Source: Pseudomonas asplenii (GTDB lineage: Bacteria > Pseudomonadota > Gammaproteobacteria > Pseudomonadales > Pseudomonadaceae). Taken from it: a DNA stretch of 64,000 bases. The position numbers and the translations under genes were made by a program. A model generated the notes under the pieces. That model saw only the letters and a program-made list of their open reading frames with translations, had not been told where the DNA came from and searched no databases. The stretch lies in contig NZ_LT629777.1 in NCBI RefSeq assembly GCF_900105475.1, forward strand, positions 1,736,001-1,800,000, given 5' to 3'. This document shows positions 51,820 to 54,846 of this stretch, piece by piece. The stretch's first letter is position 1. Every line of letters begins with the position of its first letter.

Positions 51820-52557
51820 TTATTTCTCCAGCAGCCACTGGCGATTGCCGGGATAGAGCTGCGGCTGTTCGTCGGCCTGGGCGGAGTTCAGGGCCTGGAA
51901 AATCTCCAGTTGCTTGCCCTTGCGCACGAAGATCCAGGCATTGCCCTTGTCGCCCTGCTGCAGCCAGATGCTGTCGTTGTTGCCGCTCATGTTCGCGCAA
52001 TCGCCCGCCAGGCAAAGGGCGTAGCGATCGGCGCCGGGCAGGCCCTCCAGGCGGCCGTCCGGCAGGAACTTCACCTGCGCACCTTCGCCGGGACCGCTGA
52101 CGATCTTCCAGTCGCCACCCATGTAGTCGGTATACAGCGTCTGTTCGAAGCTGGCGCCGACTGGCGCGCCGGCCGGCAGTTCATTCTGGGCGCGCGCGAA
52201 GGTTTGCTCGGGTTCGGACTCGCTGGCGCCTTGAATCAGTTCCTTGCCGTCGCGCACCAGCGGGGTGCCGGTGCTGCCGTAGAAGTCAGCGTGCCACTTC
52301 TGCTTGCCGTCCGCCCGCACATGTCCTTCGGGGCGTTCGAAGCCGTTGCTGTACTTGGCCTGGCCGTTGCGCGTGTCGATGTTCCATTCCAGGTTCGGCC
52401 CGTAGGTATCCAGGGCTTCGCGCAGGCTGCCTTTTTTCACGGCAGCGTCAATGGCCGCCTGGTTGATCCAGGTGCCGCTGATGTCATATTTGGCGGGATC
52501 GCTGGCGCAACCGCCAAGCAGGAGGGCGAACAGCGGGAGGGCGAGCGCTTTGCGCAT
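51820..52557 (-). CDS. Putative lipoprotein, 245 residues
   Basis: Starts MRKALALPLFALLLGGCASD with a lipobox LLGGC (C17); no charge at position +2 other than Ala, so outer-membrane sorting is likely. The mature part is soluble with two similar-looking WxxD/FY segments (TWINQAAIDAAVKKGSLREA, then GGDWKIVSGPGEGAQVKFLP) and a C47-type disulfide pair CLAGDC. No family name is known to me. AAGGATT upstream of ATG 52557 is the ribosome site. It follows the ridA remnant by 41 bases on the same strand, at the end of the spoT unit. Confidence 0.75.
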   Translation of the reverse strand: MRKALALPLFALLLGGCASDPAKYDISGTWINQAAIDAAVKKGSLREALDTYGPNLEWNIDTRNGQAKYSNGFERPEGHVRADGKQKWHADFYGSTGTPLVRDGKELIQGASESEPEQTFARAQNELPAGAPVGASFEQTLYTDYMGGDWKIVSGPGEGAQVKFLPDGRLEGLPGADRYALCLAGDCANMSGNNDSIWLQQGDKGNAWIFVRKGKQLEIFQALNSAQADEQPQLYPGNRQWLLEK

Positions 52558-52598
52558 GGTGGAATCCTTGCAGGCAGTGCGGGTGGTTCTGGAAAGGC

Positions 52599-52706
52599 TT
52601 ATTCGATGACCAGAGTCGTGTCCATTTCGACTTGTGCGCCGCATGGCAGCGCCGCCACACCGATGGCGGCAGTGGCCTTGTCGATGCTGAAAACGCTCTG
52701 GGTCAT
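52599..52706 (-). pseudogene. ridA: ridA remnant with an in-frame internal deletion (35 codons)
   Basis: The small frame begins MTQSVFSIDKATAAIG and then reads VAALPCGAQVEMD with ending TTLVIE and a TAA stop. The first 16 residues match the RidA (YjgF/2-iminopropanoate deaminase) N-terminus and the last 19 match its C-terminus as I remember Pseudomonas RidA, a protein of about 126 residues. About 90 residues are missing and the reading frame is kept. The junction is at AAIG, a tetrapeptide present at both ends in the intact family (DKAxAAIG and ARAAIGVAALP), so recombination between short repeats explains the loss. The ribosome site AAGGA and its place 34 bases after spoT are retained. Enzyme activity is surely lost. 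Confidence 0.85.
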
Positions 52707-52740
52707 GAATGATTCCTTGTAGTGTCCGGGCGCTGGCGAG

Positions 52741-54846
52741 CTAGGCACGCATGCGGGTGATACGGATCACGCCGGTGAGGGCGCGCAGCTTCTTGATCAC
52801 GCGGGCCAGGTGCACGCGGTCGTGCACGCTGACGACCAGTTGGACCACACTGATGCGGCCATCGCGCTCGTCCATGCTGATTTTCTCGATATTGCCGTCG
52901 GCCGCGTTGACGCTGCTGGCCAGCAGGGCAATCAGGCCGCGCTGGTGTTCCAGCTCGACGCGCAGTTCGACATTGAATTCGCCGGTGACATCCTTGGCCC
53001 AGGAGAGCTGGATGCATTTTTCCGGATTGTGGCGGATTTCGCTGATATTGCGGCAGTTTTCCAGGTGCACGACCATCCCCTTGCCGGCCGACAGATGGCC
53101 GACGATCGGATCGCCCGGAATCGGTGTGCAGCACTTGGCGTAGCTGAGCACCAGGCCCTCGGTGCCGCGAATCGCCAACGGGCCTTCGGGGCTCGGCAAC
53201 TGTTCGCCTTCGCCCATCATGCGTCGGGCGACCACGTAGGCCATGCGATTGCCCAGGCCGATGTCCTCGAGCAGGTCCTCGATCAGTTCCAGGCGGTACT
53301 CGTGCAGAATCGACTGCACGCGTTCGAGCGGAATCTTGTCCAGGGCACTGTCGAAGCCATTGAGCACCTTGTTCAGCAGGCGTTCGCCGAGGCTGATGGA
53401 CTCGGAGCGGCGTTGCAGCTTCAGGGCGTGGCGAATATGGGTACGGGCCTTGCCGGTTACCACGAAATTGAGCCATGCCGGGTTCGGCCGGGCACCGGGC
53501 GCACTGACGATCTCGACCGTGGAGCCGCTTTGCAGCGGTTCGGACAGCGGTGCGAGACGGCGATTGATCCGACAGGCAATACAGCTGTTGCCCACGTCGG
53601 TATGCACCGCATAGGCGAAGTCGACCGCCGTGGAGCCCTTGGGCAGCTCCATGATCCGGCCTTTGGGCGTGAACACATAGACCTCGTCCGGGAACAGGTC
53701 GATCTTCACGCTCTCGATGAACTCCAGGGAGTTGCCGGCGCGCTGCTGCATTTCCAGCACGCCCTTGACCCACTGGCGGGCGCGGGCATGGGTGCCCTTG
53801 GGTTGTTCGTCACCACTGGACTTGTACAGCCAGTGGGCGGCGATGCCGTTGTTGGCCATCTCTTCCATTTCTCGGGTACGGATCTGGATCTCGATCGGTA
53901 CGCCGTGCATGCCGAACAGCGTGGTATGCAGCGACTGGTAGCCGTTGGCCTTGGGAATCGCGATGTAGTCCTTGAACCGGCCGGGCAATGGCTTGTACAG
54001 GTTGTGCACGGCGCCGAGCACGCGATAGCAGGTGTCGACCTTGTCGACGATGACCCGGAACGCATAGACGTCCATGATCTCGTTGAAGGCCCGACGTTTG
54101 CCGCGCATCTTCTTGTAGATGCCGTAGAGGTGTTTCTGCCGGCCGCTGACTTCGCCCTCGATGCCGTCCACCGCCAGGCAGTGGCTGAGGGATTCCTCGA
54201 TCTTGTTGACGATTTCCTTGCGGTTGCCCCGGGCGCGCTTGACCGCCTGGTAGATGCGCGCGGAGCGCATCGGATGCATGGCCTTGAAACCCAGGTCCTC
54301 GAACTCGATGCGTACCGCGTGCATGCCCAGCCGGTTGGCGATGGGCGCATAGATCTCGAGGGTTTCCTTGGCGATGCGCCGGCGTTTTTCCCCCGAGAGC
54401 ACTTCCAGGGTACGCATGTTGTGCAGACGGTCGGCGAGCTTGACCAGGATCACGCGGATATCGCGGGCCATGGCCATCGCCATCTTCTGGAAGTTTTCCG
54501 CCTGTGCCTCGGCCTTGGTCTCGAAGTTCATCTGAGTCAGCTTGCTGACTCCGTCGACCAGTTCGGCGACGGTCTCGCCGAACTGCGCCTGCAGCGCTTC
54601 CTTGGCGATTCCGGTGTCTTCGATCACGTCATGCAGCATCGCGGCCATCAGGCTCTGATGGTCCATGTGCATGTCGGCAAGAATATTGGCCACCGCCAGC
54701 GGGTGCGTGACGTAGGCTTCGCCGCTGCGGCGGCGTTGGCCGTCGTGGGCTTGTTCTGCGTAGAAGTACGCCCGGCGGACCAGGTTGACCTGGTCGGCAC
54801 CGAGGTAGGCCGATAAGCGATTGGCGAGGGCGTCTATGCTCGGCAT
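52741..54846 (-). CDS. spoT: Bifunctional (p)ppGpp synthetase/hydrolase SpoT
   Basis: A 701-residue RelA/SpoT enzyme controlling the stringent-response alarmone. The hydrolase HD domain contains H72-D73 (MLHDVIEDTG) and RLHNMRTL. The synthetase domain has KANGYQSLHTTLFGMHGVPI. A TGS domain follows (VYVFTPKGRIMELPKGSTAV), then a C-terminal ACT domain (RVELEHQRGLIALLASSVNA) for regulation. Both catalytic halves look intact. It follows rpoZ by 60 bases, so the group gmk-rpoZ-spoT is co-regulated as in E. coli. Confidence 0.97.
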   Translation of the reverse strand: MPSIDALANRLSAYLGADQVNLVRRAYFYAEQAHDGQRRRSGEAYVTHPLAVANILADMHMDHQSLMAAMLHDVIEDTGIAKEALQAQFGETVAELVDGVSKLTQMNFETKAEAQAENFQKMAMAMARDIRVILVKLADRLHNMRTLEVLSGEKRRRIAKETLEIYAPIANRLGMHAVRIEFEDLGFKAMHPMRSARIYQAVKRARGNRKEIVNKIEESLSHCLAVDGIEGEVSGRQKHLYGIYKKMRGKRRAFNEIMDVYAFRVIVDKVDTCYRVLGAVHNLYKPLPGRFKDYIAIPKANGYQSLHTTLFGMHGVPIEIQIRTREMEEMANNGIAAHWLYKSSGDEQPKGTHARARQWVKGVLEMQQRAGNSLEFIESVKIDLFPDEVYVFTPKGRIMELPKGSTAVDFAYAVHTDVGNSCIACRINRRLAPLSEPLQSGSTVEIVSAPGARPNPAWLNFVVTGKARTHIRHALKLQRRSESISLGERLLNKVLNGFDSALDKIPLERVQSILHEYRLELIEDLLEDIGLGNRMAYVVARRMMGEGEQLPSPEGPLAIRGTEGLVLSYAKCCTPIPGDPIVGHLSAGKGMVVHLENCRNISEIRHNPEKCIQLSWAKDVTGEFNVELRVELEHQRGLIALLASSVNAADGNIEKISMDERDGRISVVQLVVSVHDRVHLARVIKKLRALTGVIRITRMRA

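What the first reader, a model, noticed from the sequence alone, without database searches (positions are those of the whole stretch)
52599..52706. ridA reduced to a 35-codon in-frame remnant by deletion between AAIG-encoding repeats
The reading frame joins a normal RidA start to a normal RidA end, losing about 90 codons without a frameshift. In intact RidA the tetrapeptide AAIG occurs near both ends, and the junction is exactly there, so repeat-mediated deletion is the natural explanation. RidA removes reactive enamines and its loss usually upsets branched-chain amino-acid and PLP metabolism, so a core gene next to spoT being destroyed is striking. The retained frame and ribosome site mean a 35-residue peptide could still be made. 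Alternatives are another active RidA paralogue elsewhere, or an assembly artefact.
Basis: partly seen in the sequence, partly recalled or inferred. Interest (0 to 1): 0.75.

Follow-up and report, generated by a model that had tools for sequence, protein, structure and literature searches.

The report
Deleted ridA, likely replaced by import
A Pseudomonas genome has lost most of a nearly universal housekeeping gene (ridA) by a deletion between two short repeats, and it carries an imported relative of that gene, rare in the genus, which probably does the job instead.

Summary
Window 52599-52706 (minus) is an in-frame 35-codon ridA remnant between spoT and a lipoprotein-like gene. All 80 named relatives fetched at this locus have a full 126-codon ridA there. 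The missing piece is 273 bp; ridA of the closest of those 80 has one direct repeat of at least 9 bp, GCCGCCATCGG, spaced exactly 273 bp. Seven of 35 remnant residues occur in none of the 80, so the deletion is not recent and an assembly artefact is very unlikely.

New: canonical ridA is found in 393 of 398 Pseudomonas genomes. Three of the five without it are 78-86% complete and uninformative. The other two are this genome and its sister among 13 sampled, P. vanderleydeniana, which has no trace of ridA there. These two are also two of only three genomes in 398 with a Bacillota-like RidA (47.5% identical to canonical, catalytic Arg kept, under purifying selection, linked to a PAS_6/HTH_22 regulator); the third, P. 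yamanorum, keeps both. Both IlvA enzymes, presumed source of the toxic enamine, are intact. Best reading: the acquired RidA made the core gene dispensable. Complementation is untested; the two lineages are sisters, so one loss or two is open.

The parts
52599..52706 (-). ridA remnant: 35 codons plus stop, joining canonical RidA codons 1-16 to 108-126 (junction inside the repeat)
52660..52670 (-). single remaining copy of the 11-bp repeat GCCGCCATCGG at the deletion junction (18-bp context 52660-52677)
52714..52718 (-). AAGGA Shine-Dalgarno-like sequence kept in front of the remnant
   Evidence: read from the sequence
52566..52574 (-). site of a second deletion relative to P. gingeri A6001 and P. 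batumici, which have a 9-10 bp-arm inverted repeat there (CTGGCGCAG/CTGCGCCAG)
52741..54846 (-). spoT, intact upstream neighbour (context and rate control)
51820..52557 (-). lipoprotein-like gene downstream, no Pfam match at E 1e-5; used to fetch named relatives

Best explanation
The canonical ridA of the spoT locus was inactivated by a 273-bp deletion between two copies of an 11-bp direct repeat (shown by the sequence; replication slippage or short-homology recombination is inferred). The leftover 35-codon frame lacks the catalytic arginine and most of the fold and is decaying. The loss was tolerated because the lineage of this species and of P. vanderleydeniana carries a Bacillota-like RidA, linked to a PAS_6/HTH_22 regulator gene (G000:C1:5347669-5348037, outside the window), which I infer deaminates the 2-aminoacrylate made by the intact IlvA enzymes. 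This is displacement of a core gene by a horizontally acquired equivalent at another site.
For: Deletion. Decay: 9 of 35 residues differ from the commonest residue and 7 of 35 are in none of 80 relatives; against L043, 7 of 30 remnant codons differ nonsynonymously versus 14 of 702 in spoT (Fisher p 7e-6). Core status: canonical ridA at E<=1e-60 in 393 of 398 Pseudomonas genomes, 383 of 385 of the good ones. The two good genomes without it are G000 and G320. Bacillota-like RidA at E<=1e-42 in 3 of 398: G000, G320 (89%), G061 (70%). G320 (contig length 7,026,924, equal to that of the P. vanderleydeniana protein P0006) has spoT followed after 26 bases by the lipoprotein gene, no ridA, and no canonical copy among its 12 PF01042 matches. 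G000 and G320 are sisters among 13 genomes (support 100). The acquired RidA scores 170.4 bits on NCBIfam TIGR00004 (cut-off 106.25; canonical 180.8), keeps the Tyr, Arg and Glu positions, groups apart from canonical Pseudomonas RidA and has dN 0.060, dS 0.695 between G000 and G320. Of the 120 listed database relatives 8 bear an organism name: 3 Pseudomonas, 5 Bacillota (taxonomy, the two 'Clostridia bacterium' by name). Both genes over the TIGR01124 (ilvA) cut-off are open in G000. Bacillus subtilis YabJ, among the solved relatives, is reported as an enamine/imine deaminase in vitro (PMC9239102, introduction).
Against: No activity or expression was tested. P. aeruginosa has a second RidA-subfamily protein (PA3123), yet only loss of PA5339 gives the ridA defects (PMC9239102), so subfamily membership alone does not guarantee replacement. 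G061 (P. yamanorum) has both genes, so acquisition does not force loss. G000 and G320 are sisters, so the co-occurrence may be one acquisition and one loss on one stem, and the naive probability of 4e-5 overstates the evidence. The acquired gene sits in different surroundings in G000 and G320, so a single common acquisition is not shown. This paralogue was picked as the replacement after seeing its score. A tree member set chosen by similarity to it cannot prove the donor.
Confidence: 0.7

Rival explanations
1. Simple loss without replacement: the deletion is repeat-mediated, but the cell tolerates 2-aminoacrylate by other means (ordinary Rid paralogues, altered targets, or a niche with isoleucine), and the acquired RidA serves only its own gene cluster.
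For: 12 PF01042 proteins in the genome; in P. aeruginosa ridA defects are corrected by isoleucine and eased by suppressor mutations (PMC9239102 abstract and passages). The acquired gene is linked to a regulator gene and a palindrome, so it may be expressed only under special conditions. In P. yamanorum it lies with a PLP-enzyme-class gene, which fits a local role.
Against: The only two good genomes of 385 without canonical ridA are both carriers of a gene found in 3 of 398, with the caveat that they are sisters. IscS position 183, where a known suppressor lies, is Q in this genome as in the four relatives compared, and both IlvA-type genes are open. In P. aeruginosa the ordinary paralogues do not cover for PA5339.
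Confidence: 0.25
2. The 35-residue peptide is a functional product retained by selection (for example a regulatory or binding peptide).
For: Frame, start, Shine-Dalgarno-like sequence and stop are all kept; an identical 35-residue protein stands in the database for a cluster of 5 member sequences.
Against: High nonsynonymous divergence, residues seen in no relative, complete absence of the stretch in the sister species. About ten changed codons leave a fair chance of no stop codon without selection (inference).
Confidence: 0.03
3. Assembly or sequencing artefact: an intact ridA was collapsed across the repeat.
For: The junction lies exactly at a repeat, as a misassembly could.
Against: An 11-bp repeat 273 bp apart is easily spanned by reads (inference); the codons on both sides carry substitutions found in none of 80 relatives; an identical database protein lies on a contig of 106,375 bases, so not the single contig of this genome, although it may be another assembly of the same strain.
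Confidence: 0.02

Closest known systems
Canonical Pseudomonas RidA (PA5339 type, spoT-linked)
   Same: Same locus, same start and end of the protein; 126 codons in 80 of 80 named relatives.
   Different: Here 91 codons including the catalytic arginine are gone and the rest is decaying.
Bacillota-type RidA (Bacillus subtilis YabJ and relatives)
   Same: The acquired RidA of this genome resembles this group and exceeds the TIGR00004 cut-off.
   Different: It sits in a Pseudomonas chromosome beside a PAS_6/HTH_22 regulator gene, with a palindrome TGAACA-NN-TGTTCA in front.
Displacement of a core gene by a horizontally acquired equivalent (xenologous displacement; term recalled)
   Same: Rare acquired homologue plus loss of the resident gene in the same clade.
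   Different: Replacement is not in situ; a decaying stump remains here and nothing remains in the sister species.

Membership tests
RidA subfamily (remnant at 52599-52706) | full-length RidA of about 125 residues | tested here: not met
   35 residues only
RidA subfamily (remnant at 52599-52706) | catalytic arginine (Arg105 of TdcF; position 103 of the canonical Pseudomonas protein) | tested here: not met
   that residue lies in the deleted stretch or was lost at the junction; the remnant reads ATAAIG there
RidA subfamily (acquired protein, L001) | NCBIfam TIGR00004 above its cut-off | tested here: met
   170.4 bits against 106.25
RidA subfamily (acquired protein, L001) | catalytic Arg with Tyr and Glu of the active site | tested here: met
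   aligned with canonical RidA, positions kept; roles from PMC4433059 passages, which also say that changing Tyr or Glu had little effect
RidA subfamily (acquired protein, L001) | enamine/imine deaminase activity | not testable with these tools
   no assay; inferred from the arginine criterion and from YabJ
Core-gene displacement by horizontal transfer | resident gene lost in the lineage but present in relatives | tested here: met
Core-gene displacement by horizontal transfer | replacement gene of different descent present in the same lineage | tested here: met
   donor not established
Core-gene displacement by horizontal transfer | replacement gene performs the lost function | not testable with these tools
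   needs complementation or removal mutants
Core-gene displacement by horizontal transfer | acquisition precedes loss | tested here: inconclusive
   neither order is excluded; surroundings of the gene differ between G000 and G320

The most novel reading that the evidence does not exclude
In one Pseudomonas clade the housekeeping enamine defence has moved from the spoT-linked ridA to an acquired Bacillota-type RidA under a local PAS_6/HTH_22 regulator, and the old gene was then lost twice by different deletions (273-bp in-frame slippage here, complete removal in P. vanderleydeniana).
Probability: 0.33. Interest if true: 0.6.

Novelty: new member of a known kind. Interest (0 to 1): 0.47.

Why it matters
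[quoted passage not shown] aeruginosa only one of nine Rid proteins carries the ridA phenotype (PMC9239102, introduction). A clade that has dropped that gene while holding a distant RidA is a natural experiment on what makes a Rid protein able to do the housekeeping job, and gives a small concrete test: remove the acquired gene and look for serine sensitivity rescued by isoleucine.

Tried and rejected
Compensation by loss of the enamine source was considered and rejected: both genes over the ilvA (TIGR01124) cut-off are open. Compensation by the known IscS change at position 183 was rejected: Q is kept; the other two suppressors in PMC9239102 (dapA, PA1559) were not checked. Three further genomes without a canonical ridA hit (G231, G235, G329) were set aside as uninformative: 86, 78 and 78% complete, with no spoT-region match in two and only a 36-base match in the third. 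A second genus draw centred on G320 (397 genomes) gave no new carrier; the listed handles were those of the first draw, so it adds little.

I first held that G320 keeps bases which G000 lost, which would have shown independent losses. The check does not bear this out: the 26 bases before the G320 lipoprotein gene match G000 at 20 of 26 and P. gingeri A6001 at 21 of 26. One shared loss, later completed in G320, is therefore as open as two losses, and I lowered the probability of the two-loss reading (0.45 to 0.33) and the overall confidence slightly (0.72 to 0.70). Dating by substitution counts was only a rough estimate: the remnant dN of 0.11 against L043 is less than the neutral change expected had the deletion preceded the G000-G320 split (dS between them about 0.37), which leans to a later deletion, but seven changes decide nothing.

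Literature: the rows listed (20 of 1,284 papers; 15 of 379; 12 of 200; 1 of 1; 12 of 12; 10 of 68, all irrelevant), seen as titles and starts of abstracts, show no paper on natural loss or displacement of ridA in Pseudomonas; the unlisted rows were not seen and only open-licence PMC papers are held. Papers seen: PMC9239102 outline with abstract, passages and introduction (its abstract says eight Rid proteins, its introduction nine); PMC4433059 and PMC5619798 passages only; all others as listings. PA3123 was not compared with the acquired RidA.

Nine of the 12 own Rid proteins went through NCBIfam (L010-L012 did not). L002 also exceeds the TIGR00004 cut-off (118.8 bits) but its start looks like a signal peptide (read by eye), so it was not favoured as the cytosolic replacement.

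Full report
What is there. The window is a stretch of a 6.53-Mb single-contig Pseudomonas genome (G000:C1:1736001-1800000; genus from the relatives). Between spoT (52741-54846, minus) and a lipoprotein-like gene (51820-52557, minus) lies a 35-codon frame, 52706 to 52599, with ATG, an AAGGA sequence 7 nt upstream and TAA. Its first 16 residues are the start of RidA and its last 19 the end of RidA.

Ancestral state. The search for related loci returned 80 named genome loci around the lipoprotein gene (the best 80 of 183 confirmed). All 80 hold a full 126-codon ridA between spoT and that gene. The closest by the lipoprotein is P. gingeri A6001 (L043). In one search, 27 of 38 genomes, the own one included, matched the region, and in the listed same-genus rows other than the own the first piece ends at or before the repeat. 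In one search (199 genomes, listing capped) every listed row except the window's own stops at or before query position 222, the repeat.

Mechanism of the deletion. 126 - 35 = 91 codons = 273 bp. In the P. gingeri A6001 gene the only direct repeat of 9 bp or more at spacings 20 to 349 bp is GCCGCCATCGG, at spacing 273; the repeat finder sees an 18-bp pair, 16 of 18 identical, at the same spacing. Among the 80 relatives the longest exact run at that spacing is 11-12 bp in 33 and shorter in 47. One copy remains at 52660-52670. Slippage or short-homology recombination between the two copies explains the junction and, since 273 is a multiple of three, the retained frame. Which of the two routes is inference.

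Age and decay. Nine of 35 remnant residues differ from the commonest residue in the 80 relatives, and seven of these nine occur in none of the 80. Leaving out the repeat codons, 7 of 30 remnant codons differ nonsynonymously from L043, against 14 of 702 spoT codons (Fisher p 7e-6); dN is 0.109 against 0.011. The end codons of ridA are freer than the middle (3 nonsynonymous among the same 30 codons between L043 and L044), so part of the contrast is positional. An identical 35-residue protein stands in the database for a cluster of 5 member sequences with 2 contigs, the longest 106,375 bases, so not the 6.53-Mb contig; its sources are not shown and it may be another assembly of the same strain. 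Together this makes an assembly artefact very unlikely. A second deletion near 52566-52574 removed a 9-10-bp-arm inverted repeat that P. gingeri A6001 and P. batumici have downstream of ridA.

How rare the loss is. Canonical ridA was found at E<=1e-60 in 393 of 398 Pseudomonas genomes (383 of 385 with at least 90% completeness and at most 5% contamination). Without a hit: G000, G320, G231, G235, G329. The last three are 86, 78 and 78% complete and show no match, a 36-base match and no match to the spoT region, so they say nothing. G320 is complete; its spoT stop codon is followed after 26 bases by the lipoprotein start, with no ridA, and its 12 PF01042 matches include no canonical one. Its contig length, 7,026,924, equals that of the P. 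vanderleydeniana protein, hence the name. The 26 bases fit G000 at 20 and P. gingeri A6001 at 21 positions, so they do not tell whether the 273-bp deletion was shared and later completed in G320 or the two losses are independent.

The likely replacement. G000 has 12 PF01042 matches, none at the remnant. The best-scoring (L001, C1:5347669-5348037) is 47.5% identical to canonical RidA, scores 170.4 bits on TIGR00004 (cut-off 106.25; canonical 180.8) and keeps the Tyr, Arg and Glu positions. Relatives of this type at E<=1e-42 occur in 3 of 398 Pseudomonas genomes: G000, G320 (89%) and G061 (70%) (the second draw of 397 gave the last two again). G061 shares contig lengths with P. yamanorum records (581,620 with L081; 147,909 with P0085) and keeps an intact canonical ridA. 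Among the 120 listed database hits, 8 bear an organism name: 3 Pseudomonas and 5 Bacillota. A tree of 69 proteins (61 of the 120 listed, 7 canonical, the own one) separates it from canonical RidA (100/99), though the 61 were chosen by similarity to it. Between G000 and G320 the gene has dN 0.060 and dS 0.695, so it is under purifying selection. In all three genomes it is linked to a PAS_6/HTH_22 (YheO-like) regulator gene. In G000 and G320 the pair is adjacent but the surroundings differ (amino-acid permease and TonB receptor against a Sir2-type protein); in G061 an aminotransferase-class protein and a Na+/H+ antiporter lie between. A palindrome TGAACA-NN-TGTTCA precedes the gene in G000 and G320, with one mismatch in G061, a candidate operator (inference).

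Why replacement is the best reading. Both genes over the TIGR01124 cut-off (IlvA paralogs are named as the main 2-aminoacrylate source in P. aeruginosa; PMC9239102) are open, and IscS keeps Q183, so neither the source nor the one target checked explains tolerance. In P. aeruginosa only PA5339 of nine Rid proteins gives the ridA phenotype, so ordinary paralogues are poor candidates; but PA3123, also of the RidA subfamily, does not cover there either, so the same could be true of L001. Both good genomes without canonical ridA carry the rare type. Treating genomes as independent the chance is 4e-5, but G000 and G320 are sisters among 13 genomes (support 100; the 13 were my choice of close hits, several lack some of the 14 genes, argB most of all), so the evidence is that of one clade with one or two losses. 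G061 shows that both genes can coexist.

Verdict. What is new is that the loss belongs to a small clade that holds an acquired RidA, which points to displacement rather than destruction of the function. Complementation is the missing test.

Noticed in passing
window 52566-52574; L043:2952-2978; L044:2952-2977: A 9-10 bp-arm inverted repeat between ridA and the lipoprotein gene in relatives is missing from the window; its loss may join spoT-operon transcription to the lipoprotein gene (inference).
   Followed up: partly
L168:4100-4113, L196:5165-5178, L197:5401-5414: Palindrome TGAACA-NN-TGTTCA (one mismatch in L197) in front of the acquired rid gene in three species, with a PAS_6/HTH_22 regulator gene nearby: a candidate operator.
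   Followed up: partly
L197:1543-5340: In P. yamanorum the acquired-type rid gene lies with an aminotransferase-class (PF00155) protein, a Na+/H+ antiporter and the PAS_6/HTH_22 regulator; the PLP-type enzyme may be the enamine source this RidA originally served.
   Followed up: no
G065:C1:3096521-3097510: The second ilvA-type gene of this genome shows one internal TGA in the match: possible pseudogene.
   Followed up: no
L135:1495-1968: G010 has a Rid protein with a lipoprotein-like start (read by eye) beside a glutathione-reductase-like gene.
   Followed up: no
plasmid record NZ_CP070468.1:61008-62280: A 92.8-kb record filed as a P. aeruginosa plasmid holds spoT, a RidA family gene and a hypothetical gene (80.7% identity), as on the chromosome.
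   Followed up: no
window 51820-52557: Lipoprotein-like protein of 245 aa, found in many Pseudomonas genomes, with no Pfam match.
   Followed up: no
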